Part shown: one piece after another, positions 1-58,968 of the stretch
How the letters are laid out: each line of letters starts with the position of its first letter
Position numbering within the stretch: the first letter of the stretch is position 1
From: Macrocystis pyrifera
Lineage: Eukaryota > Sar > Phaeophyceae > Laminariales > Laminariaceae
NCBI GenBank assembly: GCA_031763025.1
Contig: JASSKH010000007.1
Coordinates: 13,974,080 to 14,038,079 of the forward strand
Reading direction: 5' to 3'
DNA length: 64,000 nt
Translations under genes and position numbers: made by a program
Notes under the pieces: generated by a model
Seen by the model: the letters and a program-made list of their open reading frames with translations, nothing else
What the model was told of the DNA's origin: nothing
Databases searched by the model: none

Positions 1-2950
1 CATTCAGCCCGGCCTCGCCATGTGGAGCAACGAAACGGGAATCGCCGCGTTCCCCGGTAAGCTACTGTTTACTGTCTGCTGCTATAGTGATATAGTGCTA
101 TAAGCTGCTGTCGACTGCCTTTACTGTTGGGGGTGGGAATTGATTCGTTTTAGTACGTAAAAAAAAAAAAAAAAAAAAATGTCGCATGGTTGATGTCTGG
201 GGAAAATGAAGTATTTTTAGGAAATTAACCAACAATCCGTGATTGGGGAAAAAAAATAATTATTTGCCACCAAAAAATCCGTTCGATGATGCTGCTGCCT
301 CTCAAAAATAAAAAATAAAAAGCAGTGCCGGCGTCGACGTTGCGGCATCGAGGTACGTACATACGAGCTGAAAAAAAAGTCGAGCCTTGTTGCTTTTTGC
401 ACGACACGTGCTGCAGGACAGCGCACAGCCAAGCTCGGAGCGTACAGCTGCGACGTAGACACGGGCGCGCGAGCGTGACCGAATCGCGCGTTCCTGGTGG
501 CCCCCCTTGGGATTGGCGGCCGGCAGCGCGAGAATGCTGCCCCCCCTGTGAAACACATCTTGTACGTACCGATGAAGTCGAGGGATATGTGGTCCTGGTT
601 TACTGCTATGTGTTGGGCACGTGTAATCACAGGAAGAACATACCTCGTACCTCCACACAGCATCGACAATCGGCTGCGTGTTGCTATACTGCACTTCGCC
701 GAGACCGGGATTTCGACGGCGCTGCCTGCACCTCCGTGGAAGCGCGCCCCACCTCTAGCTCACGGGCAAGTTGTTGCTGTGCGTGCAGCTAGGCTTGAGC
801 CGTACGGCCAAGGCTGCACTCACCACGCGCCTGGAGTTCTACATGGTGCTGCTGTATGTGCTCGTACGTACCTACCGCTCTGTCCGGAAATATAATAAAC
901 CGTTTATTTTCATATTTATAGTTGAACCATTCCTATATTTCCGGGCAGGGTGGTGCAGCAGAGTATTAATCCTCCCACTCACACTGTGGGAGAATGTGAA
1001 ACGTACCAAGGGTAACGGGATGTGTTGGAGGAGATGAGGAAAGCGGACGGATGTGGTATGAAGAAGTAATAGTACACCACATAATAGCGAAAGAACGATC
1101 GCTGTCCCGGAGATATGTGGTGGAAGTACAAGGCAAAAACAGGAAGGGGGTAAGGTACATGCGAGTAGGCAAAAGGATCTGATGTAGTACCAGGTACATG
1201 GAAAAAAAAAAAAAACCGTACTGAGCGCCCAAATGTCGGAGGTGTCTCTGTTAGGAGTAGCATCGGTGCTCCGTCCCGAAAGGGCGGCGTTGGCAATGTC
1301 CCAATGACTACGGCAAGCAACAAATGAGTACCCCCCCCCCCCCGTCCCCGTCCCCCGTTCCGAATCCTCTCGCCATCACCACCACCACCGCCGCCGCCGC
1401 CGCCGCCGCCCCTGCCGCGATTTTTGCCGTGTGCCACTATAATGCTCACGCTGAAACAGGCGGAGGCGTGAGCTTCGAGACTCCTTGGTGGGGAGACTCA
1501 GCGTGGATCTACGACGGAGTTGTGACGTCTTTGAGCTACGACGTCGCAACGCGGAGCTTGTACGTTGCCGGTGCTTTCGACAGGGTCAATGGAGAGGCGC
1601 CTTGCCAGAGCATAGCGGTGAGCAACGGAGGCGGGGGGGGGGGGGGGGGGGGCGTCCTCATATGGTGGTTACCTTAGTCATTCGACCATTGACCACTCAC
1701 CCCTTTCGAGACGAAGCACCGTTCCTACTCTTACTGTATTACAAGGGTCCATAGTTAATAGGACCTATTTTATACATGAAAACCTATATAGATACAACTA
1801 TAATTACGATTTTTGAGGTCGTTGTCACTTGCTAGCTCTTGGCAGACAGACCGACTGATAGACAGCTCTTCGCAAACAGCCCATCTTCTTTGAAACAGCC
1901 GAACAGCCAAACAACCTTTCTTCCTTCTTTGAAACAGCCGAACAGCCAAACAACCTTTCTTCTTTCTTCTTCGCCAAACAGCCAAACAACCTTTTCTTCT
2001 TTCTTCTTCCGCAAACTGCCAACCAATAGACAGCTCTTCGCACGGCGCCTAAAAGAGGCGTCTCGCCTTCGACGAACGGCATAGATAGGTGCAGCTGTCG
2101 GCGGCCAAGCTGCTGCTGTCGGTGGCGAACCTGCTGGTGCTGCAACCCCCGCCTCTCCCTTCTCCACGCCCCCTAAGCTCACCTCCCCCTCGTCGAGAGG
2201 CGCGTGGTCCTCGCCCTCTGGCATAGGAGCGGCAACGACAACGACCGACCTGGTGCCGGCTGTTGTTTGCGACCAGTGCACGGACCAGCACTTGGTCAAG
2301 AACTCCGCGCCTGGTGGCAAAAACGTGGCCTTCGCCACCTGCTAGGATCCCACGTGCGTGGTGGCGGGATCATCCTGACAGGGCAACCGACTGCGAGTTC
2401 TGTGCTCGCCCGATCAAGGAAGGGACTGTCTCGTACTCCCTCGAGACTGCTGACAGTGGTGAGTGTCTTACGTCTATTGTGCATGCTGTATGTTGCCACG
2501 TCTTTTAAGGGTTTTCAATTGCCTTTTTGCATACAAACCTACGTCAAAGCGTTTTTTTTTTTTTTTGACTCATCCATCCTCGTTCTTTCCCCTTCGTGCG
2601 TTGGGTCGGCTCCTCTTACACACAGTGCGCGCGAACGCGCACATGCACAACTGTTTGCGGGACGTGAAGCACACGATATCTGTGTGTACATGTTTTGGTG
2701 ACCCCACGTACTCATTTTGCTCGTTTTCGGCTGCCGCTGCTGCTGCTGCTGCTGTCAGCGCCACGCCATGAGTGCTGCTGCTGCTGTGCACCTGCTTCTC
2801 CTGTGCACTCGCTGCTGCTGTAGTGCTGCTGCTTTGTTGCCGTGCATCATGCTGGAAGCGTACATATTTTCGGATCGTCAATTCCGTAGGTTTTGCGATG
2901 GCGGCATACCAGGGTACATGCTTTTTTTCTTCCTTATTTTCATATCGTTG

Positions 2951-6000: not shown

Positions 6001-7656
6001 GGAGTACGTGATTGGCTTTTTTGTTTTTTCCCCTTAAGTCCGGCGATGGCGGCGCGATCGCGTTGATTCTTGATTCACGAGTCGATATCGTATCGCCCTC
6101 CGTAGCTACTCTCTTACAATGTCACACTCCCTAGCGTCACCCCCCGGGTCGCCGCCCCCGCGCCGCCGCCGCTACCCTCCGCCCCCCATTGCGCGTTTAC
6201 CCGAACGGACCCGAAAATTATTTCCGACCGCCCCCCCCCCCCTCTCCGTCGCTGCACCACGTTTTTTTAGTTCAACCTACCTACGCAACCGAACCTAAAA
6301 TTCAATTTCGACATATAACTTCCCAAATTTTCCCCATGTTTTCTCTTTTTCCTATTTTTCCTATTTTTCCTATTTTTCCTATTTTTCCAAAACAAAATAC
6401 TGTTTGCATTTCCCATTTATTGCCCTTTTTCCAAAATTTCGATTTACCCGCCCCCCCCCCCCCCCCCCCCCCCCCCCCTCTACCGTTTTTTTTTTCACCT
6501 TTTCGTTTTCGCTACTTCGAACACCCGCACCCACACCCACACAGGTGTGGAGGGTCGACCAGCGCTCGTGGGCCTGCCTTCGCGAGTCCAGCCACAGCTT
6601 CTCTGCTGTGACCTCAATCCTCTACACCGAGGGCATGCTCTACGTCGCCGGAGTCCCGGACGAACGCTCCTCGTGGTCCGAGACCTGGCGGGAGGGGTAC
6701 GCTCCCGGAAGAGGGGAGAGGGGGGGGGTGGGGGTCGAGGCGGGCGTGGGGGCGGGGGGTGGAGAGCACAACGCGACGAAATATACGATAGCGCGCATGA
6801 GCCAGAGCCCTGCTAAGTTCCATGGCAAGTATGATGCTTGGGGGGCGGGAGCGAACGCGGCAGGGGGGGTGGGGGTTGGAGGAGGGGGTGATGGCGGTGA
6901 CAACGGGGGTGATGATCGTGAGGTGGGTTGGAGTTTTGAGGGGGGGGTGGGAAGGGTGGGTTGGGTTGAGGGTTTGGGGCGCGCGCAGGGGGGAGGGGGG
7001 GGGGGGAGTCGAAAAAGTCGATGGATAAACAAGTGTTTGGATTGATGAAGTCTATGGAAAACGAACGTTTGGATCGAAGAGAATGATGAAGGTGACGCGA
7101 TCAAGTCGGCGGGGGGGGAGGGGGGCGTACTCATTTGTTGCTTGCCTTAGTCGTTTGACCATTGACCACGCATCCCTTTCGAGACGGAGCACCGTTCCTA
7201 CTCCTAATAGAGACACCTCCAACAATTGGGCGCTCATTACGTTGTTTCCATGAATTACATAGAAACTGTTTGCTAATCTTATCCCCTTCCTGTTCGGCCT
7301 CCTGTGGCCACCATCTATCTCCTACGATAGCGATCGTTTTCTCGCTGCTATTCATTGTATCAAACTCCTCCATGTCACATTCGTCTATTTTCCTCATCTC
7401 CTCTTCTAGCACATCCCGTTCCTCCTGTGGGAATCAGTGCGCCGAGGAGCCCACGCAAGGCTGATGCTTTTTGGCCTAGCGTCTCGTTGAGGGCAGAGCA
7501 CGGGATGGTATGGTGCGGACGGTACGGTACGGTACAATACGGAGCGTTTGGGTAGAAATATGTGGTTTACTGTAGGGCAAATGATTCCCAGTCAATTCAC
7601 AGAGCGCGACAATCGTTCGGGACATTCGTTGCTAGACACTTCCCTCCCCCAGCTGC

Positions 7657-7695
<39 letters not shown>

Positions 7696-10600
7696 AGTAC
7701 GCCTCGTCACCACCGCGCTTTTTTTTTTTTTGTTCACCGCGCCGCGCCGCGCCGTGCTTGTTTTCCTCACGAAAATATTTTCGACTAAGGAGCAGGATGG
7801 GAGCACTAGCGACGGTGGCGGCGGCAACGGAGGCAGGAACGACGAGGTTAAGGAAGGAGAAAGAGAAGCCTCCAGCGGCGGACTCGGGGGGGGGGGGGGG
7901 GGGGGGGCGGACTGCATCGCCCACTCGGCGGCAGTCACCGCCGGCGGCAACTGCAGGGTCAGTGGCACAGTCAGCAGCAGCACCAACAGCAGCAGCAACA
8001 GTACCAGCAGCAACAGGAGGAGCAACAGGAGCGCCACCAGGAGCAACGGCAGCGGCAGCGGCGCGGACTACGATCCGCGAAAGGGCAGGAGGACAAAAAA
8101 TCCGCCTCTGCCTCTGTCCCTGCCTCTGGAGCGACAGGTACCGGCGGTGCCACCGCGGCCGGCTCCGAGCATAACAGCGGCGGTGACGGGGAAGAAGACG
8201 GTGGTGGTGGCGGCAGCGGCAGCGGCGGCGGCGGTGGTGGTGGAGACCAAGGTGGTGGTGGTGGTGGTAGTAGCGAGAGCTACGGGCTGGGCGGGGGAGT
8301 ATACTACGCCCCGACTAGCGGGCCTAACTGCACCTCCTCTGCCGCCGCGGGTTCGTGGAGCGGCGTTGGCGGGAAGGAGGCGGGAGGGCGGGAGGAGGAT
8401 AAGGAGCAAGGAGGGGGATACAAGCCTGTGTGCGGGGTTGATGTGATTGTCAGCCCCGGAGGCGACGATGAGTATCGGTGAGGCAGGGCATGGCTGAGCA
8501 AGGCCGGGTGGGGTGGGGCGGGCCAAGGCGGGCGGGCGGGCGGGCGGGCGAGTGAACGTGGCGCTGGTGTTTTTTGTCTCTTTTTGTGTAGTCTCTCTCG
8601 TCTTTTGTCTTTTTTTTTTTTTTTGTCTTTTTTTTCTTCATCTTTTTTGTGTGATTGTCCTTTTGTCTGCTGTCTTTTGAATTATAAATATTTTTTTGGT
8701 TGGTTTTAAATGTGCTGTGTTTTTGGGTTGTGTTGTGTCTCCCGTACAGCGCACTCGGAAGTGAAAGCGCTCGACTGCATCCGCACCGATGTGGCAGGGT
8801 GTATGTCCACAGCTCACTCAACATGTTTGTGGGCTTCGTTGTTCCGAAGTCCAAAGTATCGGCCTTCTTATCCTGCCCCGTTATCCTTGTTCTTCGTGTG
8901 TGCTGCTGTTCGTTTTTGTTAGTTTTGGTGTTGCTGCTGCTGCTGCTACTGCTGCTGCTGCTGCTGCTATCTTCATGTGGTTTCGACGTTTTTTTTTATA
9001 CATTGCTGCTGTGCTTCTTGTTTTGTTCTGTTTTTGCGGTTCGCAGGTTTTACTGGGAATGGCTGCCGGCATTCGCTGGTGTGCACGGGCGCATCAACGA
9101 GCTGAGTGGAGGCGAGGACCTGTTTCCCGACAGCGTCTTCATCGGAGGGGAGTTTAACCCTCCAGTGCTCGTCTGGACGAACGACCCCGACGTTGGGCCG
9201 TCCGCAACGAGTGAGCGGTTGGTTTGCCTTTGCTTTGGCCTTTGCTTTGCCTTTGCTTTGCCTTTGCTCTGCCTTCCCTATGCTTTTGGTCTGACACACC
9301 TTCCCTTCCCTTCTCCTACCTCACCCTACTCCGGTTTTCTGTGTTTGAAGCAATCGGAGAGGAGGTAGAGCTGCTGGGATCAGTAACCTCGATAACACAA
9401 ATGCTCCTACCCCCGCCTGGCAAGCGGTCGGGAGGCGTGTCCGAGTCCGGGGGCGCCGCGGCGGGGGTGGTGCACGCGGGGGAAGGGACAGACAACGCGC
9501 TTATTCCAGATCAGGAACTGAACGTGAGAGGAGAGAGCACGAGATAAGGAGGGGCGGAGGGGGCGGGGGAGGGGGGGCAGAGGGTGTTGTGTGCTGCGCT
9601 TTCGGTGGGAATACGTATACAACCCAGGTTTTTTGTGGCGTTTGGCTTGGGAGTGTAGTGAGCGTAAGCGTTATTTATTACCCGATCCCCGGAACATACT
9701 GCTGTGATGAGGTATCGATTTCACAACTCGATTAGATCATGTGCAGATCATAAAGATCATGATCTACATCTTTCAAGGAAGATACCATACGCTCCTCATC
9801 TGCATGATCTGCATAACGTGCATGATCTAGCACGGGCTTCTTGGGTTCGATCTGCACTATATGGTACATATCCTTCACAACACCCCACAATTGCAGCGTT
9901 TGAGCTACAGTAGATGATCTACGGTGTGCTACATTTTAAATGGGGAGGGGAGGGGGAGGGGATCGTGCCGTACAGTAGGAATATCATAGGAGGGGGAAGA
10001 GAAAGGATGGCCGTCAACACGAGCGATGGCAACCGCGTCACCCCAGCCCCCCCCGTGTCCAGGATAGCACGGTCGAACGAAGCATCGCACGCAGTTTGCT
10101 TCGTAAATGTTTTTCTGGCGGGAGTTCTGCCCCGTGTGCCTCCACTTCATGGCGTCACTGGCGTGTGGTAAGTTTGTGCTGTGCTTAGCGTTGGTGGGGG
10201 GGGAGGGCGCGAGGCACTTCTTGATTTTTGAGTGGCTTGGCCCGGCTTGGCTTGGCTTGGGCGCCATCAGCAGTCAACAGCGCCTACGCCGGCCGCTTCG
10301 CGCCCGCTGCCCCCTACGACAACGTTCGACACTTCAGACAGATTGTCCCTGCAGATCATCTACGAATCATCTACAGATCATCGATCTTGATATTTTGAAT
10401 TCGAAACAGCTATGCTGCCGAACTTATGTGTATAATCTAAGCTCATGTTGCCCGGTAGGAGCTGTGTAAGCTGCGTGTCGTGCTCCGTCCCGGCACTGAA
10501 GGGGTGCGAGGGTCTCTATGGTCACCCGACTACCGCCACGCATGACCCCCCGGGATACACACATAGCAAATGGATAGGAAAGGGTAAAGCACACGTAGGC

Positions 10601-12119
10601 AAGATGGGTGCGATTCCTATCAGACACGCACCTTGGCACTAGGAATAGGAGATGCATCCTGATGAATGGGACAATACCAAAGCTAGAATGTGCAGGAGAA
10701 GTACGGGAAGGGAACGTGAGGTTCGTAAAACAGTTGGAAACGGTATAGATGACAGCAGCTAAAAAAATAGTGAGTTGCTCAAGTACGACGAGTAATACGG
10801 TACTAAGAACAGAAATGGGAATTATCTCACTTAAAACGAATGGAGACATGAGCAAGTTTAAATGGCAACACTGTATAAAGTAAGGAACATGCCAAAAAGA
10901 GGTTGCCTAGCATAGTTGATAGAGCTGTATGAGGAAAAGTAACAAAAAGGCGGGCTGGAATATGGCGGAATAGCGTAGTTGAGAAAGTATGGAAGGGTAG
11001 GGGGAAACCAAGAAGAGAGTCCGCAGAAAAGTTTGGGAAGTACAACAGAGAAGTAGAAGAAAGGGCAGAAAGAAGGGAAAGGCTAGCGCTGAGAAACAAG
11101 GTGAAATCGGAGAAGCACCTGAAGATATACGGAGGGTTAAGCGAAGGGATAGGAATGAAAACGTATTTGCACGGCCTGCGCCGAAATGTTGGAAGTGTCT
11201 GTTTCAGGAGTAGGAACGGTGCCCCGTCTCGAAAGGGATGCGTGGTCGATGGCCAAGTAACGAAGGCAAGCAACTAATGAGTACGCCCCCCCCCCCCCCC
11301 CCCCCGAAAGATCATTTTTTGTGCGGGGAGAACCTTTACTCCCCACAAGGGGGATGATCGTATCACGTTGTGTGTATATGGTGAGGCAGTTACATAGTAA
11401 ACCCATTGCTGTCTCTGGAAGTGGTCACACCAGAAATTTTAATCGATTCGTTGATGCTGTCATCCATATGCATGATAATCCGCCTCTAAAGCGGTTCCTA
11501 GTAGGATGCAGCCCACCCTTCATGCGACTCGCCCAACACCTCACGGCGCTTCGCGCTTGGTGCAAGCTATGTCTGCCTGGTCGGTGAAAACCCGACTTGC
11601 TCCGTCCCGGCATTGTATATAGGGATGCGAGGGTCTATGGCCATACGACTTCGGCCATGCATGATATTGAGTACACCCCCCCCCGTCTTCATATGAACAT
11701 GATTCGCAGGATGGGAACCACGCGCTGCTGATGGCGATGGTGCTGGCATGCATGGCGCTCGGGGTGTGCCTCGGCGCGGGCATGGCCTTCGTATGCCACA
11801 AGCAGGAATTCATGAGCGTGCCGTGGCTGCAGCACATGGTCGAGGTGATATCGATGTCTTACGTATGGGTTATATACGGAATATGGATGGGTTATACATA
11901 GAGCATGCCTTGAGTGATGGATGCTGAACGATAATTTTTCGGGACTTTTCACGGGCCATGACCCGATCATCCAGGGTCGGGTCAGGAGGTTTTTGAAACC
12001 TCACGGCTCGGGTCGAGTCTTGGTGGTTGGGCTCATACGTTGGTACTACTGTAGGAATACGCCAAGCACGGTATACAGCTGCAGCAGCAGCGGCACTGCT
12101 CGTACGAGTAGGTGCAACG

Positions 12120-12150
<31 letters not shown>

Positions 12151-15100
12151 CACAACGACAAACAGCACGCGGTAGAAGTACAGCATGGGTATTCTACGCT
12201 GTAGGAGGAAGCAGCGGCGAGCAGTGTCCTGCATCCAATGCTTGCAATATATACGAAGAAAAATACATACCTGGTATTAAAATGTAAAAATCCACCCCGG
12301 TCGACAGTATAAAATGAAAATGGAGAATAAAAAAAAAAGTGAAAAAAACAATGAAAAAAATAGTCGTTGCCGGACGTCGGACCCTCGTGGTATAATATCA
12401 ATTTGCAGCACTATTCAGGCAACTACATATGTATGTACATCTTGCTGTAATACTTTCGATGACGGTGAGCGTTGATGTACTTTCTGTCGGATCAACTTTC
12501 CCGTAGAAATTGATTGGTTGTAGTTCCGTCGGTCTCCGAAGGGAGCGGCATCTACTGTAGTCCCGATCTTGTATGATCTAGCTCATGTTGCTGAGCGGGA
12601 CCCGTATAAGCCGCATGACCTACGTGGCACATGTTTCCTGGGTTTGATCTGTAGTATGCACAGATAGATCCTGCACAACCCCTCACAACGGGAGGCGAGG
12701 AGCTACTTACCGTACAGTATACCAGCTATCATCTGCTGTAGACGGATAGATATGCAGATACAGGTAGATAGATAGATCATGATCTGTACGACTTGTAGCA
12801 ATGTCTCAACAGCTGTTGCCGGTCTGGTGCTGCCGTCGGTCTGCCGGTCTGTCGGTATGTCGGTGTTGGATCGGCCGCCTTCATTGCTCCTCAGGGCCGC
12901 AACGGGATCTCTCTGACGACGCTCGCGGGGCCCCACGGCCTCATGGCGGGAGCGGAGGCGGAGTTCCGGCTGCGTTTCGAGCGGGCGATGCAAGCGAGAC
13001 ACCTTGTCAAGGGCCACAACCTCAACATAATCAACCCCAAAGAAATCATGCTCCACAAGATCATAGGAGAGGGGAGCTTTGGACGCGTTTGGAGCGGCCG
13101 CTGGAGGAGCAGCAGGGTGAGTCCCAAGGGGGTGGGAGGTGGGTTGGGGTGTAGGGGGGGGGGCGGGGTGGGGGGCAGGGCGGCAAGGGGGCGTGGGGGT
13201 GGGGGAGAGGGTTGGGGTGGGAGGTGTACGCATGTCATGCATTGCCTTAGTAGGGGGGGAGGGGTAGGGGGTGATCGTGGATGGTGTGGGTGGTTTTGGT
13301 GGTGATGACGAATGTGATAGTTGGTCGATGGTGAGGGTGATGATGGTGCGTGGTTGTGATGGTGCATGTTGACGGTGATGTTGCTGGTTATGGCGATGAT
13401 GCGATCGAAAAAAAGAGTGATGTTGGATATGTCCGTGTGCCGGGGTTCGCCCCGCTCCGAAAAAAACATTAAAGACTAGTCGTAGTGCAGCGGTACCGCA
13501 GTAGTACCGCACGCAGGACTAACAATCAGGGTGTGTCTGGTCTCCCTTCTTCTTCCTCGTCTTCAACGTATATCGTGTACCGCCGGTTTACGGTATAGCG
13601 CATCCCTGGTGTGGCATACGTATACCGCATGCCTTTCATGGAGTTAAGTTCAGCGTACATGGTATTCATATAAAATACACGGTGCCAGATGAGTACTAAA
13701 CGATACGGTACGGTGTACACTACGGTGTACGAGGTGCATTTTGTTTGTACGTACGAATATGTGTACGGTATACATTTAGATTCAACATATACCAGGTACC
13801 TGTCGCGATATGTATGTATTCCCCAAACACTTTGGGGTCTTTGGCCGTTTGACAGAAAACGGTATATAAGAAAATGTCACAGAAAACGGTATCTTCCTTT
13901 TTGATTTGTTGGGCCTTGAGTTGATTTTCTACTGACAATTGGCATCAAAACCACCGGTGTACCGTTTTATGGAGATTTTGGCGGGTTACGTGACATGTTT
14001 TTGTCGGGCATGTTCGGGACGTTTTCTTATGGAAGGCCCCACCCATCGAAACGGTGAAATGGGAACACGGTGTACATGTTACAAATACACGGTACATACC
14101 GAACATATTTAGACCCCTCGCTAAACCTTAAGGTCTGGTTTGCGCAGGTGGCAGTGAAGGAGTTCGTCTTCGCGCAGGCGGCGATCGCGGGGGGGTCTCT
14201 GCAGCGCAACGAGCTGATAGAGGAGATTGTCGGAGAGGCGGCGATCATGTCCTTCCTGCAGCACCCTCGCATTCTACACCTGTACGGGTGCTCTCTCACC
14301 TCCCAGGTACCACTGAAACCATTTTGGTTCCCATTGTGAGGCGTCTATTCTCTGTATCATCCAGCCGGTCTGCGTGTGGAGGTGGGGTGGGGCAGGGGTA
14401 TCAGACTAGGGAGACTAGGGGAGTGGTGGAGGTGGGGGGGGGCGGGGCGTACTCACTTCTTGCTCGACATGGTAATTTGATCAACCATTGACCACGCGTC
14501 CTTTTCGAGACGGAGCACCGTTCCTACTCCTAATGGAGACACCTCCAACACTTGGGCGCTCATTAATGTGTTCGTCCATTTTTGAATGTGAAAAGGCCTA
14601 TCTTATCCTCTTCCTGTGGGAGGGGGGTGTACTCATGTTCATGGGGGGGGGGGGGGGGGGTAAAAACGGGTTGGGGTGAGGCGTTGGGGGGAGTGGGCAG
14701 CATCCGCCACGGGTAGGGAGAGTTTGACATGCCGTTTGCAACGAGACTGGGGTAGAGATGGCTCGCTTATACGGTAGTTGTTGACGAACGTTGCTTTGCC
14801 TCGATAAGCAGAAGTCGCGCGGCCCCAGCATATGTCGCCCGCTCGCTGATCACGATCGCGCACAACACAACAGGGGTTGGTCGTAGGGGTTTCTACCAGC
14901 CAGCACCCGTCGGTATTTCATTTTCCGTCACACTCCCGTCGAGATATCGCCGCCGTCGAAAGAAAATGTATAATACAAACCCAGCCCCGGGGAGAGATGA
15001 GGGTGAGGAGGGGTAACCCTCACCCTCCCAAGACAACGCCGCCGAACAACATCAACACGTCAACCAATGCCCCTACGGGTTGCTAACCCAACAGGCCGGG

Positions 15101-16179
15101 GATACTGCGACATTTTCTATCCCCCCCCCTCTGGTCCCCCCCCCCCCCCCCCCCCCCCCCCCGTCTCGAAAGGGATGCGTGGTCAATGGTCAAATGACTA
15201 AGGCAAGCAATAATTTAGTACGCCCCCACACCGCAAGCTAAATCAACTCAATAAGGTTGACATCCATGTGCAAGAAAGTCCGCCTCACAAGCGCTTCCTA
15301 GCGGGACGCACCTCACCCTTCATGCTACTCGCCGGACACCTCACGGTGCGTCGCGCTTGATGCAAGCAATGTCTGCCTGGTCGGTGAAAACCCGATGCGC
15401 TCCGTCCCGGCATTGTAGGGATGCGAGGGTCTATGGTCATACGACTACGGTCATGCATGATATCGCTATCGTAGGAGATAGACGTTGTCCGTAAGGCAAA
15501 ACAGGGAGGAGTTAAGGTACGTACGAGTAGGCAAAATAATTTTATGTAATACCAGGTATATAGAAAAAACGTAATGAGCGCCCAAATGCAGGAAATGTCT
15601 CTATTCGGAGTAGCAACGGTGCTCCGTCTCGAAAGGGATGCGTGGCCAATACCCCAATGACTAATGCAAGCAACAAATGAGTACCCCCCCCCCCCAACCA
15701 ATGGACTTCGCGAAAACGCTGAACCTGCGATTTCGTGCAGGGGACCTGGACCTGCCAGAAAGAAGAAAGAGGTATACCAGTAGCCGGGAGGAGGAGGAGG
15801 AAGTAGGTGCACAGATGTGCCCGTGTGGCAAGCCAGTAGAGGGTAGAACGCCCTTATTAAGATAATGTGAAATGTACAAAGAGGAACGGGATGTTTTAGA
15901 AGAGGGGATGAGAGAAATAAACGAATGTGACATGGACGAGTTTGGTCCACTAGATAGCAGCGACAAAACGATCGCTGTCCTAGGAGATAGATGGTCGCCA
16001 CAGGCGGCAAAACCGGAAGGGGATAAGAGTAGCAAAAAAAATCTATGTAATATATGGAAACGACGTAGTGAGCGCTCAAATATTGGAGGTGTCTCTGTTA
16101 GGAGTAGAAACGGTGCTCCGTATCGAAAGGGATGCGTGGTCAATGTTCCAATGACTCAGGCAAGCAACAAACAAATACG

Positions 16180-16217
<38 letters not shown>

Positions 16218-19200
16218 TCAAAAATATCACCCCCTCCTAGTGCACCCCCTCCCCTCCTGAAACAACATCTCTTCCCCTCCCCTCCCCTCCCCACCACATG
16301 CATGACACCGCAGGCAATTTGGATCGTGAGCGAACTCTGCTCGCGCGGCAGCCTTCGGCAGGTATTGGATGACCGCGGCACCCCTCTGCCTCCCAGGGTG
16401 AGGCTTAGGATGGCCGTGCACGTGGCGGAGGGCATGCTGTACCTTCACAGTCGGGAGGAGCCCATCATACACCGCGACCTCAAGAGTCATAACATTTTCA
16501 TGCAGGAAGACGCGGAGTGAGTCGGGTTGATGGTGGTGGTGGTGGTGGGGGGAGTTGTACTCATAATCATGATAATGGCCGTTGTCGTATGACCATAGAC
16601 CCCCGCATCCCTACAATGCCGGGACGGAACAAGTCGGATTTTCACCGACCAGACAGACACTGCTTGCACCAAGCGCGAAGCGCCGTGAGGTGTTAGGCGA
16701 GTCGCCTGAAGGGTGAGCTGCATCCTACTAAGAACCGTTATATAGGCGGATTTTCTTGCATCTGGATGACAGCATCAATGAATTGATTTAATTTCTGGTG
16801 TGGCCACTTCCAGAGACAGCAGTGGGTTTACTATGTAACTGCCTCGTGGGAGCCTCACCATATACCCACTGCAGAATACGATAATCCCCCTAGTGCGGAG
16901 TAAAGGCTCTCCCCGCACAAAAATGATCTAATTTGACCGCCAGTTGTGGTAACCGCCAAAAAAAAAAAAAAAAAACGGTGCCCTGGCTGTCTAGCTCACG
17001 CAGTGAAAGGCGTGTTTTACAGCGTCGTCGCCAACCGACGCCAACCCAACCTATATATATGCCAGGTGGTGGTGGGGAGGGATTACTCATGTCAAGCATG
17101 ACCGTAGTCGTATGACCATAGACTCTTGCATCTTTACAGTGCCGGGACGTAGCGCCTCTGGCTTTCACCGACCAGGCAGGCATTGCTTGCACTTAGCGTG
17201 AACCGCCGTGAGGTGATCGGCTTGTATCGGCTTGTCGCATGCGGGGGGGGGGGGGGGGGGGGGGGGGGGGAGATACTCCTTTTTTGCCTGCCTTAGTAAT
17301 ATGACAATTTACCACGCATCCTTTTCGAGTCGAAACACGCAGCGGGGAGTGGTAATAGGGATGCTGGGGGGGCGTGGTTGGTGGTGTAGTTGATGGTCTC
17401 ACCTTCGTCATTCTTGGATATGTTGGCGCAGTCGTTTTTGCTGCTGCTGCGTTTGGTCCTGCTGGTGTACTTGCTTGAGACAGCCCTCTAGTCGCGGGTA
17501 CCCCCCTCCCCCAACCCTAACCCATAACGAAACCACACCAAAAACATAAGCCAACATCTTCTCCCCCTTCTCCGCCCCCCCCCCCCCCTCGCTCTGCGCC
17601 CCCCCTCAACCGCAAGGGGTCTGCTCCAACCGAAGATAGGCGACTGGGGTTCGGCTCGTGCGGTGGCCCTGTACACAGGAATGAAGAGCATGACGCACGG
17701 GGTGGGGACCACATGTTGGCTAGCGCCTGAGGTGGGTAATTTTGCCCCGTTTTGGGTGCGGTAGTTGTCCTTCTGTCGATGGAAATGTTAGTCTCGTTTG
17801 GATGCAAGGGTTGCCTTTTTCGCATGTTTTTGCGGATATATAATATACATTAACGATACAAATTTGTATTCGTAGAAGAAAAGGCTTACATCGAATATGC
17901 CGCTTCGAAGGCAGGTCTTGTGCGTATTCCGATTTTTTTTTTTTTTTTTGTGACAGGGTTTCCATCTGCTTTGCTTTTTTTTTTCGAAGAGCAAGGGATG
18001 GAAGGGGGCCCTCCTGAGGGTGGGGAGCCCAAGAAGAGCTCACCCCCTGAAACGTTGTTATCGTGCTGCTGACCCTGTTCATCGTGGTGCTTTGTCTTGG
18101 CTTGCTCTTGTTTTTCTTTTGCCTTGCTTTGCCTTGCCCTGCCTTGCCTTGCCCTGCCTCACCTTACCTTACCTTACCTTGCCTTGCCTTGCCTTGCCTT
18201 GCCTTGCTTCGCCTTGCCGAACATACCTTGTCTTGCCTTGCCGTACAGGTGATCAAGGACGCCAAGGGGAGCGAGAAGGCCGACGTCTATGCGTTCGGGA
18301 TACTGCTGTGGGAGCTGGCCACGAGGGAGGAGGTAGGTGGTTCGACAGGGAAGAGGCGCCATCGCGCTTGTCGTGCAGTCGTCGTTGGTGCTGGCGTTGT
18401 CCCGCTGTCGGTGTCAAATTGGTGGCGTTGTCCTGCTGTCGGTGTCAAATTGTCGTTCGCTGTTGAGATGTTGTCGCTGTTGTTGCTGCTGTTGCCATGT
18501 TCGTTTTCATGATGTTGTCTTTATCTCGTCGATATTGTTGTGTGTTGGCGTGCTCTGGCGTTGTTGACGATGACATCGTTGAGTATGCATGCTGCCTGCC
18601 GTCGTCGTCGTCGCTGTCGCTGTGGTCGTGACATCTTTGCCGTTGCCGTTGCCGTCGCCGTCGCCGTTGTAGCACTGCCGCGGTTGACGACTTGTGCGTG
18701 CTTATCGTTATCATTTTTTTTCATGTTTTCGGGCTTGTTCTTGCTTGCTCGTTGCCCACGCGTGACGCAAACAAGGAGTCGATGTAACAGTTGGCGTATC
18801 TCCGTTCCAAACACTCCTTCTGCCTACCTGCCTGCCTGCCTACTTGATTGCCTGCTTTCCTGCCTGCCTGCCTGTATTGTGTCTATCACGTGCGTCCTCA
18901 AGTATGCATACATCTTGATGCGGTGTGTGTGTTGTGTGTGATGCAGTGACATGTGGTGTGGTGTGTGCCATGCGTAGAGGTGGTCGACTTTGAAAAAAAG
19001 GTTTTTTTTCGGAAACCCGGCAGGCGTGTACGAGAAACACGTTTGTGGAAAAACAAAATGCGTTCGTTTTCGCCGGTTTAAATCGAATAACCGAATGCCG
19101 GATGAAATCGGGGGGGGGGAAACGGATAAAATCGGAAAACCGGCTCGAACCGGCAGCACCGAACACAATCTTCGTCGATTTTCTCCTGAATAAAACCATC

Positions 19201-20409: not shown

Positions 20410-20441
<32 letters not shown>

Positions 20442-29367: not shown

Positions 29368-32300
29368 CTACCGGACAACAGTCTCCGAAGGCGCGAGGTG
29401 ATGCTCAAGGAAGGCCATCTCCGTTGCCGCGTCCCTGAGGCTGTCTAAGGTGTTGCCCGGGCCGTGGTGCCCGTCCGTATCGCTCACGCGGAGCAGCACC
29501 GGCGCCTTGCCCGTGCTCACCGCACGGACCCTCGATACCCACTTAGCTGGGTCCCAGACATTCACCCTGGCGGATGAAGGCAGTCGGCGCCAACAGAGGA
29601 GGGGGGGGGGGTGGGGGGGGGGGGGGGTGTACTCCTTATCATGAATGACCGTGTTCGAATGACCATAGACCCTCGCATCCCTACAATACCGGGACGGAAC
29701 ACGCCGGGTTGTCACCGACCAGGCGGACATTGCTTGCACCAAGCGCGAAGCGCCGTGAGGTGTTGGGCGAGTCGCATGAAGGGTGAGCAGCATCCTACCA
29801 AGAACCGCTTTTGAGGCGGACTTTCTTGCATATGGATGACAGCATCAATGAATTGATACGATCACCCCCCTTATGCGGAGTCAAGGTTCTCCCCGAATGA
29901 AAATGATCCGACTCGACCGCCAGTCGTGGTGACCGCCAAAAAAAGAAATGGTACCCTGGTTGTCTAGCTCACGCAGTGAGAGGCGTGTCTGACAGCATCG
30001 TCGCCAACCGATGCTAACCCGACCCATCTATATACCAGACATATAATATAGCGGGGGGGGGTACTCGATATTATGCATGATCATAGTCGTATGACCATAC
30101 GAAGATCCTTGCATCCCTGCAATGCCGGGACGGGGCATGTCGGGTTTTCACCGACCACGCACACATTGCTTGCACCAAACGCGAAGCGCCGTGAGGTGTT
30201 CGGCAAGTCGCATGAAGGGTGAGCTGCATCCCGCTAAAAAACGCTTGTGGGGCGGACTTGCATATGGATGGCAGTTTCGAACGAAATTATTCGTTTTCTG
30301 GTGTGGCCAGGGGGGGGTAGGTGAACCTCTCGAGAAGTTTGTATCAAGCGAACGTTGCAGGGTGCATGCACGCGAAGGGAACTGGTTCTAGGAGGAACTC
30401 GCAACGTGTTGCGTGTTTTCTTCTCCTGCCGCCGTCTTTTCCTCGTTGACTACTGCACTTTGGGCGCACAAGCCAATAGCAGCGGTAGCCCACCCCCTAC
30501 TGAAGTATTGCTTCAACTTGCCTTGCCTTGCCCTGCCCCGTCGTACCATCCACTACCTTGCCTTGCCCATACCTTACCGTGGCTTACCACACCCCACCCT
30601 ACCCTTCCCTAGCCTAGCCTACCTGACCTTATCTGCGTTGACGACACGGGCATGTACCATACCTGTTGTCGTTTGTCGATGCCGTCACGAGTATCGCCGG
30701 ATAGTCCTGCTCTCGGACATTCTCGTAGGGACAGTACGATCGAATCATCGCCTCCGCCTCCTCGCTGCTGCCGGGGTTTCCCCACTCGTCAAACTCGTGA
30801 ACCGTAAGCGGGAGAGAAAGTGTCCCGCATGGCCGATAATACCCCAAGAAATGGAGCCTGGATGGGAGGAGGGGGGGGTGGGGTGGGGGGGGGGGGGGGG
30901 GGGGGGGGGTGACTGATTATCATGGGGGGGGGCAGAAATGAGCAGGCTCAACCAAACACGAAATTATCAAAAAAATACAAATAATACTATTGTCGCGACT
31001 TCACGGGGCACACACGCCGGCGGTTCAGAATCGAACCATCGAAAAGCAATGCGTAATCAACGAGTGACATTATATTTACGGGTGAATCACCGCCCCTAGC
31101 AGCCATAGTCACCCCCCTGCCAACCCCCCTTGATTCAGAACTACCGCTCATCGCTACCAGATAAGCATTAAGCTCTAATGCACCTCCATAATTTATATAT
31201 ATCTCGTGTCTCTCGTTTTGCCAGCACTGGTTCTGCGAGACAGCCTGCTGCGTCGTCGGCAACTTCATGGGCCCTTCCGCATCCTGAGAACCAAACAATG
31301 TTCGAGCTGTGGCAATTGCTACGCGCCCGTTAGGCAACATATTACCGCTGTCGCAAAGCACTAACGATAAGCACCCACGCACCCCCGTAATCCATCGCTA
31401 AATATTGCTCAGCACACAACCTTCACCACCCATCGTACCAAGCACCCACCCATCCCCATCACCCACCGCCCACCCATCGCTGAGCTAAATCAGCCACTCA
31501 CTTCCACCACCCATCGCTAGCCAGCCATCACGACTGTCGCTAAGCGCCAGCGCACTCCCCCCCTTCCATCACCCACCGCAAAGCACCCCATCACCATTAT
31601 TGCAAAGCACTAAAGCACACCTCCAACAACCATCGCTGAGCAACACACTATATATATCATCATGGTCACGCACCAAGCACCCACCCGCCTTCATCACCAT
31701 CCCCGAGCACGCATCAATTCTATCGCAAGGCACAAAGCACCCACCCACCTCCATCACCCCTCGCTAAGCACCCACCACCGCTGCCGTTAAGCACCATTAA
31801 CAAATACTTTATTCACCTCGATCGCTTGTCGCTAAGCAACATATTGCCAAGCACCAAGCACTCACCCACCTCCATCACCCATCGCTTAGCACACGCCACC
31901 ATTGCGCCAAGCGCACACCACATATTCATCACCACCACTAAACGCACACCACTATTTCACCATCACTACTGTATATAAGCACACACCACACCTTCATCAC
32001 CTCGCTAAGTACACACCACACCTTCACCACCATCGCTACCCACACGCCACAACTTCATCACGAAAAACTAAGCAACACACCACACCTTCACCACCACCAC
32101 GAGGCGCACACCATTCACACATCACCATTGCTAACCACACCCTACACACCCATCACCCATCACTAACCACGCACCCACCTCCACCACCATCGCAAGGTAC
32201 AATCCATCACTATCGCCAAACACTACTCGCAAGCACCCATTCACCCACCTCCATCACCCACTGCTAAGCATACACCACACACACACCTTTGTCGCCATCC

Positions 32301-38300: not shown

Positions 38301-41300
38301 TGGGCTGGTGGTGGTTTTGGTCGGGCCGATAAGATAGCGCGGCGGGAAGCGCGAAAAACAAATGCACTTGCGGCCTCGCGCCAGATCTGCCGCAGCGGCC
38401 GCCTGTTAGCCGTCTACGCCGGCCCAACAGGAGAATGGTCTACGTAGCGCAATAGGACTGCTGCAGTCCTAGCTGTGAGGTCTCACGTACGTCAATTGTA
38501 ACTCTCGGCCTCAGCAGGTCAGTAGTTAAATAGTTGGGAGTCTCTTCCATGCAGTATCTGAAAAAAAAGGTACGAGTACACCATCTATCTTGAGGATAGT
38601 CTTGAAAGAAACACACTCGCTGTCTTTTTCTTTTGTTTGCTTTTTTATCTCCTGGTCAAAATACACCAGTGCACCATGGTGTGCATCGCCCCAAACCCTC
38701 TTGACTTGATTCTAGTTCGTACAGCGAGAAAACGAATGACAAATGCGGTTTTATCACCCGGCTGCGGAAGTGTGCCTGCATTGGACAGGTCACCGATCTC
38801 CCCAGTTCACGATCTACATCTTTCAGGACAGATACATTATTGATCTGAAAGATCTGGATGATCTAGCTCATGTTGTCCGTTGGGAGTCTTGAAATCTCCA
38901 ACAATCTAGCACATGTTTCCTGGGCTGGATCCTGTACTGTACTTTACAAGCAGATCCTGCACAACACCTCACAACGGCAGGTTAGGATCTATCTGATCTA
39001 TCTGTAGATGATCTATCTTCTCTATCTGTAGATGATATATTCGATCTATCAGTAGATGATTTATCTGATCTATCTGTAGATGATCTGTCCGTCCGATGTG
39101 TGAATGTGTGAAAACTTGCCAGCGTGCAGCGCACGATAGCACATGCTACGGCGCGTGTCGTACAGCTCCATACATTGCAGTCCGACGAATAAGCCACCGT
39201 CTCCTCCTACCCTAGTAGCCCCGTCTGTTCCGTCTGGGCAATGCTGTACTCGCCAATACCGTAAGGTTCCCTTTCGCAGAATTTCGACGTGAGGTGACGC
39301 AAGGTGATCTCCGATGATGACGTTCTGGGCCGCTGAAAAAAGCGAGAAGACCCACCAGCCGGTGGAAAATTGGAGTCTACACACACAACCCCGCAAAAAA
39401 TGCAAGGCATAACGACCAGTGAAAGGAAATCGGTGCATACCATACGTATTTTCGTCTTGTTTATATTCCACACTATAATCAAGTCAACTAAGCCTCGAAC
39501 AGACTGCTAGCAAACACGGACACACTCGCACTCGCACTCGCACACGCAGTGAAAGTTAAAGCAAGCTTTGAGCCGCAACTTTCGCCCACAACAGAAAACG
39601 GCATGCCAACAGGAGAACGACAACCTCCCAGCACCGAACAGGGGACAGAACGGGTATAGTGTGCACAGCGAGCATGCATACCAAACACATCGAAAACCGA
39701 AAAGAAAAGCGCAAAAAAATAACTCGCCGCCCGGAAGAGCAAAAGATCGACCCTCTCACATCGCGTCCTCCCTCAGCACTGTTGCCTTTGCCATTCCTGG
39801 CTCCGCCCCCGCCCCAGCCCCCGCCCCAGCCCCCGCCCCCATCCCCACCGCGCTCCCATGGCCGCCATCGCCAGTCCCCAAGTCAAACACCGCCAGCACG
39901 AAGCGGTCGATGCCTTCTAGGTCGATCGTACACGCCAGCATCCGCTGGTCGGGCGAGAGCTTCATCAAGCCGAGCGAGGGCGATGGAAGCCCCTCGATTC
40001 TTCCTTCTTCTCCACAGCCTCTATCTCCGTCCCCGCTCCCCTCCTCGTGCATGCTTCGGCCGACGACGCGATGATCGCCGCGCAGACCGTGCTCTTCGAT
40101 TTCGTTCATGTCTAGGACCTGGGTGCACGCGGGAGAACAGCTGTCGATGGTTATGTAGTGCCAGTTGCTGAGTACGATATCGTACCCAATGCAGCTTTCC
40201 GGCCACCGAATAAGGCATCGATTGAGGTTGTCGAGTACCGATTTAGGCTGTCGATCACCGATTTAGGTTGCCAAGTATCGGTTTTGATTTGTCGAGTACC
40301 GGTTTAGACTGAACCGCACGACCGTCCACTGACGAGTACCGATTGCCGAAAAATCGGTACGTACCAGTACTGTTTTCACACCTATTAATAGTTATGCAAC
40401 AGTAGCAGCAGCATTGACGCCAAACCCTATACCCCCACCGTCGTGCAGCAGCAGCAGCCAGAACAACAGCAGCACTATACTTCCGTAATACTACACAAAA
40501 AGACGCGGCAGGAAAGCAACGGCCCCTCCTCCCCCCCGTCCTTCCCCATCCCCAATGCACGCCCCAGCCCATGGCGCGCACCGTTTGTTCGTCGCCGAGC
40601 GCGCTGTCCACAGGCCTCCTGACGTACACTGGAAACCCTTTTCCCTCGTCCCTTCTGGTGTAGTAGAGGAACCCCCGAGCTGCTCCGGAACACTGCGCCT
40701 GTCCCCCGCCTCCTCTTCAGGCTGCCGACTCACCATGCGCCGGTGCAGTTCTCTCGCGCGTCGACGGAGCGGCCTAAGAGAAGCGGCGGAATAGCGGTTC
40801 TCGTGCTACGTGGAAGAGGCGTTACGGAATATTGCGCGGCAGGTCGGGGGAGGGAGGGGGGGGGGGGGGGGTACTCATTATCATGCACGGTAGTCGTATG
40901 ACCATAGCCCCTCGGATCCCTACAATGCCGGGACGGAGCACGTCGGGGAGGGGGGGGGGGGGATCTGGCTCCGGTTACCCTTAAGTGATGATGCAATCGC
41001 ATTTGCGTCAATCAGCCCGACACTTTCTGCGCTCATTGCGCCCCTCGCTATATCTCCCGCCCGCCAATCAAGGATAATAACGTAATCCGCCCCCCCAGCC
41101 ATCTCGAACACCCCACCAATGATTCGGGAAAAACGAAAACGATATTTTTGCGAGGGGGGTTGCAAGTGGCCGGGTGGTGCGCCACACAGCAACCGCCCGT
41201 TTTCCGCCGTGGTCACCACGCCATAAGATGTTGCCACACAAATGTCTCGTGAGCTCACCTCCAAGTGCCGGAGCAGTTCCTCGCTGTTCGCGTCGTGCAT

Positions 41301-44157: not shown

Positions 44158-44209
<52 letters not shown>

Positions 44210-44245
44210 ACGACTATGGCCATGCATGATAATGAGTACACCCCC
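44158..44245 (+). mobile_element. 50-bp C tract with S-family terminal fragment
   Basis: About 50 C at 44158-44208, then ACGACTATGGCCATGCATGATAATGAGTACACCCCC, the terminal ~35 bases of the S family. It sits about 80 bp upstream of the first ATG of the PDZ gene. Confidence 0.5.
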
Positions 44246-56462: not shown

Positions 56463-58886
56463 CCCCCCGCGACCTTTCCCCCATACCCCCTCATCAAACG
56501 CTAGCCCAAGAGAGCTATTGTTCTGCACGGAGATACCAGACGGATTTTTCTCTCTCCGGAACGCGTTCTCGTCTTCCTTCTGCAAGGGGCAGCCCCTGCC
56601 CGAATACGTGTACGAGGCGTTCGCCCTCAGCCTGCTAGCCGCGGTGGAAATGCTGCACCGAAACGGCTTCACCCGACACAGGTTCTCCCCCGACACTGTC
56701 CTCATAGGGCCAAACATGCGGATCAAGGTGCGTCATGTGTGACGGGTGACACAATGGCAACATCGGGGGGGGTGGTACTCAATATCATGCATGGCCGTAA
56801 TCGTATGACCATAGACCCCCGGGAAGGATGGGGGGGGGGGGGGGGGGGGGGGGGGGCGATACGATTACGGCGTATTATATCATAGTACTCAAGACTCTAC
56901 GATGGGCCCCAAAAATACATTTATCTTTCTTTGTTTCGCACACAATGCCCGTCTCTAAACCAGCAGCATGTTCCCCCGGGTCGAGACTTTAAGTACTCTC
57001 CGTCTGGAAGGAAGGCCAACGACTCGAGCTTCTTGAGCTTCTTGTTTCCTCTACTGTGTAGGTGTCAATCTACTGTAAGTGTCAATGGAGGGGTATCTCT
57101 AGGGGCAACTGCTGAGATAGGTGGTATATTCACAGCAACTTTTCGCCTTGCAGGGCAAATGTTTCTGACTTTTATGAGGCTTCTCATCTATCAAAACTAC
57201 CCACGAACGCACGCGCCATCGTTCGTTTTTTTTTTTCAACACTATTTTTCGGGTGTAGACCTAGTATAGAAAAAGACCACGAGATCGATGGCTCTTCGGG
57301 TTAATTGAGCACAAAAAAAAAAAAAAAAAACGTTTTCGGGAGAGAGATTGAGAGCTCAAGTCTAATGGGGAAACTCAGAAAATATAGGGTGCACCCCCAT
57401 CTTTCGTAACATGTATCTACCCAATATATATTTGGTTGCGTTAGTCTGTTTTGTAGGGCCGTTTAGGGCCCATCTTAACGGGGACTTTCGGCTCTTTTAA
57501 TTTGACTTGATTTTTTTTTAAATTTAATTTAAGGGCCCATCTTATCGAGGACTTTCGGTTCTTTCAATTTGACTCGATTTTTTTTTTCTAATTTAATTTG
57601 CATCTGATTAAACGAAATTTAGTGTTCCCCGTTAAGATGCGCCCTTAGACCTACGTATCAAGGTGTGTAACCCAATGACAAGAGGAGAGGGGGGGGGGGG
57701 GGGGGGGGCAGGGGCTACGAGACTACTTAATATTCCTATTTTAGCGTTTACTTTTTCGCAAACAAGGGCGGTTTCGCCGTTTCAAGTGACGGAGCGAAAA
57801 GTCAACAGCAAAAAAATCCCCGCCAATTTCAAGGGGAGGCTACAAGGCTACTCGTGCTTGATTGAGTTTAATTTTTTACTACGTACCTGGTAGCGGTTTG
57901 TGGCAAAAAGGGGGAGGGCTACGAGGCTGTTTCATTTTTTTTTTCTTCTTATCTTGGTATTTATCATTCATTCGCTGTCAAGGCTGTTTCTGAAAACGGG
58001 CGCAATGACAACGGCAAAAAAAACATCACAAATTTGTCGCCAGTAGTGAGAAAAAAAAAAAAGCTGAAACCTGGCGGAGGTGCGCGAAAAAACATCACTC
58101 TATACCCTTTATCGAGACCTATACAGGCAGGCGGGGGTATACTGCAGTAGTAAAATGTAAGAAAAAAAAAAAAACGCTCCTCGTTAGTTCGTTCAGAAAT
58201 CCCACCCCATTGGCCTGATTTTGTTGGTCGTTGTAGGGATGTGGCGTCGTCGATGCCTTGTGCTTCGAGGTATTGTATTATTGCGGGGGACCATAGTAAA
58301 TGAGACCAATTTTTGTATGTAAAAATAGGGATATATATAGGTTTTTGTGTGTACCGTAGGTACTATTTACTACGGTCCTCCGTAATGATAGTATTACAGC
58401 ACGACACCCTGAGCTTGCCGCCCTCAACAACCTGCCGCATGATGAGCTTCAACGTTGATCACTCATAAATAAGCATTCCCGGAGACAGAAGAAGAAAACC
58501 AAAGACGGAAACTTTCAACAACAACAACTACTACACAAAAAGGAAACCCGTCTGCGGTATATGTGCGCGAAGTCCAGATATCTCCACTCCACTTCACTAT
58601 TAATAGTTAGTATACCTTCCCCGCCTGGTGCTGTCCTTTGTGTCCTTTGTGTCTACATACCAATGTTTTTTGCATGCACCTCAGTTTCTAAGGCTCACTT
58701 CCATCAAAGACATTCTGAGGAACCTCGAGGTCAACGCCTGCTTCAGGGCCCCACCACCAACCGCCTCCACCACCAAAAAAAAGGCCGGGGCGATCGAGAC
58801 ACAGCACGACCACCCCGATGGATCAAAGGTACGAACGTTTTACCCAACTATTAATACTATACTGCAGCAGCATGTATACATCTAAT

Positions 58887-58968
<82 letters not shown>

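What the first reader, a model, noticed from the sequence alone, without database searches (positions are those of the whole stretch)
10556..16215. LINE/SINE-like pair sharing a 3' end and carrying poly(C) tails
Two dispersed families end identically. The coding L family reads ..GCTCCGTCTCGAAAGGGATG.., GGTCAATGGTCA, GACTAAGGC.., ATGAGTAC-C(n). The non-coding S family reads ..GCTCCGTCCCGGCATTGTAG.., GGGTCTATGGTCA, GACTACGGCC.., ATGAGTAC-C(n). The last ~80 bases align, then both run into 8-80 C. SINEs that borrow a LINE 3' end are known, but those usually carry A-rich or short-repeat tails. Here the TGA stop of the LINE frame lies only about four bases from the tail. A reverse transcriptase that recognises this end and primes on or adds C is inferred.
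Basis: partly seen in the sequence, partly recalled or inferred. Interest (0 to 1): 0.88.

Follow-up and report, generated by a model that had tools for sequence, protein, structure and literature searches.

The report
Kelp jumping genes with C-run ends
In giant kelp, a jumping gene and a shorter non-coding relative share the same 3' end, carry runs of C instead of the usual A tail, and often sit head to tail between runs of C, which suggests that C runs may be both their tail and their landing site.

Summary
L is a non-LTR retrotransposon: endonuclease 5.5e-11, reverse transcriptase 1.4e-14; in locus L020 its TGA stop lies four bases before the C tail. S is a ~500-base non-coding family. Their consensus ends align over ~80 bases (score 62, shuffle maximum 36). 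The genome fits giant kelp. An exact end-plus-C pattern occurs 4,709 times, reversed control 19. New: C runs often precede the elements too (80 of 124 copies; G runs 1 of 124; random sites 3.9%). Close neighbours are co-oriented 45 to 0. The base before the tail is family-specific, so the tail start looks templated. L truncation clusters 58-67 bases from the end (19 of 49). Best reading: target-primed reverse transcription of C-tailed RNA, primed by the G strand of C tracts, older tails included. Template jumping is the main rival. Empty sites, the decisive test, could not be sought: the genome search answered only. S is not shown to be a true SINE.

The parts
10475..10551 (+). 5'-truncated S fragment with C6 shortly before the L copy
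10554..11284 (+). L copy, decayed, post-RT region to the 3' end
   Evidence: tblastn 2.3e-27 for the post-RT part; DNA match 11178-11284
11285..11305 (+). L tail, G then C20; also the C tract before the next S
11308..11674 (+). S copy of the finding
11675..11684 (+). S tail, A then C9
15136..15162 (+). C27 tract at the 5' junction of a truncated L copy
15161..15227 (+). L copy truncated 61 bases from its end (hotspot class), with a short tail GCCCCC
15226..15470 (+). S copy directly after the L tail; its own end lacks a C tail
15462..15695 (+). L copy fused to the preceding S without a C run, with a C tail
15698..16178 (+). L copy encoding the C-terminal part; its stop is lost
16179..16215 (+). 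L tail, G then C36
977..1343 (+). L copy with C tail
1633..1733 (-). L copy with C20 tail
7111..7426 (-). L copy with interrupted C tail
16547..17067 (-). near full-length S copy, preceded by another S end and a C-rich stretch
17243..17338 (-). L end with C28 tail
29613..29857 (-). S copy with C15 tail
40856..40962 (-). short S fragment with C13 before and C16 after it
44158..44245 (+). S fragment of about 30 bases after C52, with a C5 tail (not among the 128 counted copies)
56765..56856 (-). short S fragment with C27 before and C8 after it
58887..59322 (-). S copy with C81 tail

Best explanation
L is an endonuclease-plus-RT retrotransposon and S a non-autonomous element mobilised by it through a shared ~80-base 3' domain. 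Shown: L encodes both domains, the ends are shared, C tails are general, and C tracts often lie on both sides in a fixed orientation. Inferred: RNAs of both families end in the domain plus a C stretch copied from the source copy. The L endonuclease nicks the G strand of a poly(C)/poly(G) tract, and the freed G-ended strand pairs with the C tail and primes reverse transcription. Insertion inside a C tract leaves C on both sides and a target duplication hidden in C. Each copy brings a new C tract, a new landing site in the same orientation, so copies stack head to tail. Reverse transcription often stops near the 5' edge of the 3' domain, leaving fragments of about 60 bases.
For: RT and endonuclease domains; LINE-1 ORF2 and R2 among the solved structures matched by sequence. 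Shared end. C run of 5 or more within 25 bases upstream in 80/124 copies against G run in 1/124 and 3.9% of random sites; 11/24 in the unselected window. Neighbours within 60 bases: 45 same, 0 opposite orientation; 61-1000 bases: 56 same, 19 opposite. C tracts with no element found beside them exist (136 of 239 runs of 10 or more, 50 of them isolated) and could be targets. 31 C runs lie before an element with no element end recognised upstream, which template jumping alone does not give. Family-specific junction base. No clear target duplication outside the tracts. One of two arbitrary 6-kb regions of the same scaffold holds a tiny S end between C9 and C16.
Against: No empty site was seen, so C tracts present before insertion are not demonstrated. 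Of the 44 copies without upstream C in the listing, about 30 still lack it when read by eye. Copies under 100 bases have upstream C more often (43/50) than longer ones (37/74), which target choice alone does not predict, though badly placed 5' ends of long copies add to it. Unique flanks beyond the tract are hardly C-rich. Two S-L joins without C (window 15462, L028 7842) look like template switches. Element-free C tracts could instead be tail-only insertions or have other origins.
Confidence: 0.5

Rival explanations
1. Template jumping: during one insertion the enzyme copies an RNA, falls off early, and continues on the C tail of a second L or S RNA. This makes head-to-tail chains joined by C in one event.
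For: 21 C runs lie between an element end and an element start. Strict co-orientation, 45 to 0. Joins without C at window 15462 and L028 7842. Jumping is described for a non-LTR RT (PMC8857657: title, start of abstract and one passage).
Against: 31 C runs before elements have no recognised element end upstream; those would need jumps that copied only a tail. The classification can miss very short fragments.
Confidence: 0.28
2. Non-templated addition: the RT adds G residues to the nicked target strand and to the cDNA end, giving C on both sides wherever it inserts.
For: C on both sides of short copies next to unique DNA. Upstream C is commoner in short copies. Nontemplated extension is described for a non-LTR RT (title and start of abstract of PMC8857657).
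Against: The junction base differs strictly by family, which a shared enzyme adding bases would not be expected to produce at the 3' side. No clear target duplications outside the tracts.
Confidence: 0.14
3. Post-insertion change: short C tails that later expanded and spread by slippage, unequal exchange and tandem duplication.
For: C tract length varies widely between more than 99% identical paralogs. Near-identical 125-base S units repeat at L025 570-1010.
Against: Does not explain upstream C at many unrelated unique sites or varied 5' ends beside C.
Confidence: 0.08

Closest known systems
RTE-X LINEs and RTEX-N1_Ec32 of Ectocarpus (PMC12477816; section 5 part 1 and passages seen)
   Same: Brown algal LINEs with a ~600-base non-autonomous family of more than 6000 copies whose 3' end is conserved with them, 5' origin unknown. 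L's top named protein relative is an Ectocarpus protein, 68% identity over 47% of the query.
   Different: C tails, C-flanked insertions and stacking are not in the parts seen; supplements were not readable here. Sequence identity of S with RTEX-N1 not tested.
RTEX-1 of Saccharina japonica (PMC4421812, passages)
   Same: Kelp LINE reported with copies more than 95% similar and likely active.
   Different: Tail not described in the passages seen; sequence not compared.
LINE/SINE pairs with a shared 3' tail (recalled; also the start of the abstract of PMC3747384)
   Same: Non-coding element with a LINE-like 3' end.
   Different: Those tails are A-rich or short repeats (recalled); here homopolymer C, often on both sides.
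L1 copies with a 5' homopolymer (PMC2837659, abstract)
   Same: Truncated LINE copies with a homopolymer at the 5' end; the abstract says these may become new target sites.
   Different: There poly(T), attributed to twin priming, 39 loci, flanked by target duplications; here the same-strand homopolymer as the tail, in about two thirds of sampled copies.

Membership tests
Non-LTR retrotransposon (LINE) | Reverse transcriptase domain | tested here: met
   PF00078 1.4e-14 on one piece; 2.4e-06 on another, just under the curated cut-off
Non-LTR retrotransposon (LINE) | APE-type endonuclease domain | tested here: met
   PF03372 5.5e-11; that this Pfam family holds the APE-type enzymes is recalled
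Non-LTR retrotransposon (LINE) | 5' truncation of copies with a fixed 3' end | tested here: met
Non-LTR retrotransposon (LINE) | Target-site duplications | tested here: inconclusive
   No clear excess outside C tracts; duplications inside C would be invisible
RTE-X clade | RT phylogeny with named RTE-X references | not tested
   No named RTE-X sequences at hand; only relatedness to Ectocarpus proteins
SINE | Head derived from a Pol III RNA gene (tRNA, 5S, 7SL) | tested here: not met
   No Rfam match at gathering score in the window and 6 loci with S copies, no tRNA in those 6 loci, no B box within 2 mismatches in 5 S copies
SINE | 3' end shared with a partner LINE | tested here: met
SINE | Mobilised by the partner's enzyme | not testable with these tools
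   needs a retrotransposition assay

The most novel reading that the evidence does not exclude
A LINE whose tail and target are the same homopolymer: it homes to poly(C)/poly(G) tracts, each insertion makes the next landing site in the same orientation, and the system together with its parasite S has seeded the kelp genome with C tracts, some of them tail-only insertions.
Probability: 0.42. Interest if true: 0.78.

Novelty: new variant of a known kind. Interest (0 to 1): 0.62.

Why it matters
How LINE enzymes choose their RNA end and target is best studied for A-tailed and rDNA-specific elements (recalled). A C-tailed system with thousands of copies in one genome, with a non-coding partner and a sharp early stop, would show tail and target co-evolving and offer an enzyme that may prime on G strands. 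It may also help explain why the DNA sampled here is rich in long C tracts (239 C runs of 10 or more on either strand against 151 A or T runs, in a partly element-selected sample).

Tried and rejected
Divergent L lineages with a conserved 3' end: rejected. Low protein identity of two L025 copies came with frame decay; their DNA is mostly 70-95% identical to the reference throughout, with no special peak at the end.

A separate mini-family of L fragments of 58-67 bases: not supported. They are as far from each other as from long copies (0.180 within short, 0.189 within long, 0.184 between; permutation 305/500).

S 5' part derived from L: rejected, score 22 against shuffle maxima of 25 and 26.

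RNA structure: both consensus ends fold into the same three-branched shape with GUGCUC paired to GAGUAC at the tail, but energies are not unusual (z -1.35 and +0.32), and RNAalifold on 32 L and 59 S copies keeps one helix in L and none in S. Kept only as a lead.

Empty sites by self-comparison of the fetched DNA: the printed hits (one search was cut; 30 of 47) were other element copies, paralogs with the same insertion, or repeats not reaching the junction; the paralogs showed tract-length differences but no presence/absence of an element. Broad C-rich targets: hardly seen beyond the tract. Viral contigs: no exact 18-base match, and 14 pattern matches of which none encodes a relative. A link between junction base and internal sites is suggestive in S (6/300 permutations) and absent in L (176/300).

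Literature on C-tailed LINEs: the listings showed none to me; they are listings by fixed words, not proof of absence.
Full report
What was checked. The window is C221:13974080-14038079 of a 537,376,219-base genome in 223 contigs. This fits giant kelp, Macrocystis pyrifera, 537 Mb in 223 contigs (PMC10498591, passages); the name is inferred from these numbers. The interval 10556-16215 holds L and S copies: a short S end, C6, L 10554-11284, G+C20, S 11308-11674, A+C9, then L 15161, S 15226, L 15462 and L 15698-16178 with C36.

What L is. Loci L001, L029 and L030, from two related contigs, carry an L of about 4.1 kb (4,091 bases in the joined reference). Pieces of it match an endonuclease family (PF03372, 5.5e-11) and reverse transcriptase (PF00078, 1.4e-14; a second piece 2.4e-06, just under the curated cut-off). 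Solved relatives by sequence include LINE-1 ORF2 (7.9e-09) and R2 (0.0016). Of 163 protein hits, 120 are listed; the listed ones that carry an organism name are Ectocarpus proteins, plus one EukProt entry labelled Rmarinus; most carry none. All L copies read here are decayed.

What S is. Full-length S is about 500 bases and starts near GGTATATATAGGTTGGG. It has no Rfam match at gathering score and no tRNA match, no B box within two mismatches in five copies, T runs of 5 to 19 in its 5' part, and a 5' part that does not align to L beyond chance. I therefore call it a non-autonomous partner, not a proven SINE.

The shared end. The consensus of 56 S and 20 L copies aligns over the last ~80 bases: 62 against a mean of 10.2 and maximum of 36 in 500 shuffles with the last 8 bases kept.

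The sample. Copies that reach the 3' end were annotated in the window and L001-L030 (136 rows). After dropping 5 rows from near-duplicate loci (L006-L008) and 3 overlapping rows, 128 remain (77 S, 51 L), 124 of them with enough upstream sequence. The L loci were chosen by an exact C-tail pattern, so tail counts there are biased; the window (24 copies) and L045/L046 were not chosen so. Very short fragments fall below the search threshold (e.g. window 44210, seen only).

Tails. After the end, a C run of 6 or more within 40 bases: 48/51 L and 61/77 S; at least 9 C in the first 12 bases 42/51 and 61/77; no copy with 9 or more A, T or G there. Window alone: 20/24 within 100 bases. Genome-wide the exact pattern: 4,709 against 19. 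The base after GTAC, where readable, is C 22 and G 16 in L, C 24 and A 32 in S, never A in L or G in S (13 L and 21 S not readable). Fisher on 16/0 against 0/31 (one A short of the full count) gives 6.7e-13. The simplest reading is that the start of the tail is copied from the RNA.

C before the elements. A C run of at least 5 within 25 bases upstream: S 44/75, L 36/49; G run 1/75 and 0/49; random unmasked sites 3.9%. Window alone: 11/24. Of 239 C runs of 10 or more on either strand in the window and L001-L034 without seven near-duplicates, 51 follow an S/L end only, 21 lie between an end and a start, 31 precede an element only, and 136 touch neither, 50 of these with hardly any masked sequence within 80 bases. 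These classes are approximate: split tracts count more than once, and very short S pieces are missed (e.g. L018 7204). After 5' ends were extended, 44 of 124 copies lack upstream C in the listing; read by eye about 14 of these have it inside the alignment, so about 30 lack it. Neighbours within 60 bases are co-oriented 45 to 0, at 61-1000 bases 56 to 19.

Truncation. 19 of 49 L copies begin 58-67 bases from the end, against 3 at 30-57 and 8 at 68-97; S shows 12/75 at 37-47 and 21/75 at 101-147, with 4 at 48-100 and 2 at 148-194. The short L copies are not a separate subfamily. The L hotspot falls on the 5' strand of the predicted closing stem, but that fold is not significant by energy (z -1.35, +0.32) nor kept by the copies, and S shows no peak at its matching edge, so the structural reading is only a lead.

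Mechanism. The fixed orientation means the tract is either the primer or a product of insertion. Targeting of C tracts by G-ended primers explains C on both sides, hidden target duplications, insertions at element-free tracts and head-to-tail stacking in one step. Template jumping explains stacking but not the 31 runs without a recognised element end upstream. Non-templated addition does not explain the family-specific junction base. Against targeting: short copies have upstream C more often (43/50 against 37/74), some copies and some S-L joins lack C, flanks are hardly C-rich, and no empty site was seen. The decisive search did not run: the genome search answered once and was busy at every later try.

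Cautions. Tract length is not trustworthy: the same S tail reads about 12 to 47 C in four paralogs, and other tracts reach 218. Copies are decayed (best matches 71-100%), so 5' ends of long copies are uncertain. Control positions came from the same element-rich loci, with elements and their surroundings excluded.

Novelty. A LINE with a 3'-sharing non-coding partner is already reported for Ectocarpus RTE-X (PMC12477816). C tails, C on both sides and oriented stacking were not in the parts I saw, nor in what my paper searches listed. I rate it a new variant of a known kind.

Noticed in passing
window 16314-16517, with possible exons at 12889-13116 and 14148-14306: A protein kinase exon (PF07714 7.5e-14); L/S copies on either side of it would then lie in introns of one kinase gene. 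The other two pieces read like kinase exons to me but gave no Pfam hit.
   Followed up: partly
L031-L034 and L036-L043 (small contigs C22, C49, C55, C60, C84, C116, C117): Families of similar segments on small contigs (above 99% in L031-L034, mostly 95-99% in the others), with poly(C/G) tracts up to 218 bases that differ in length between copies.
   Followed up: partly
L025 570-1010: Three near-identical 125-base truncated S units with C spacers, probably a local tandem duplication.
   Followed up: no
several S copies, e.g. L014 1620, L025 570, L016 8319: An S subfamily whose end is doubled: GAGTACATCTCTCCTATCGAGTAC before the C tail.
   Followed up: no
L022 3686, L014 4878, window 20411-20440: Clean C tracts of 30-46 in DNA without any S or L found nearby; targets or tail-only insertions.
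   Followed up: partly
window 60269-60315: C16, an 11-base spacer, then G20: an inverted pair of homopolymers.
   Followed up: no
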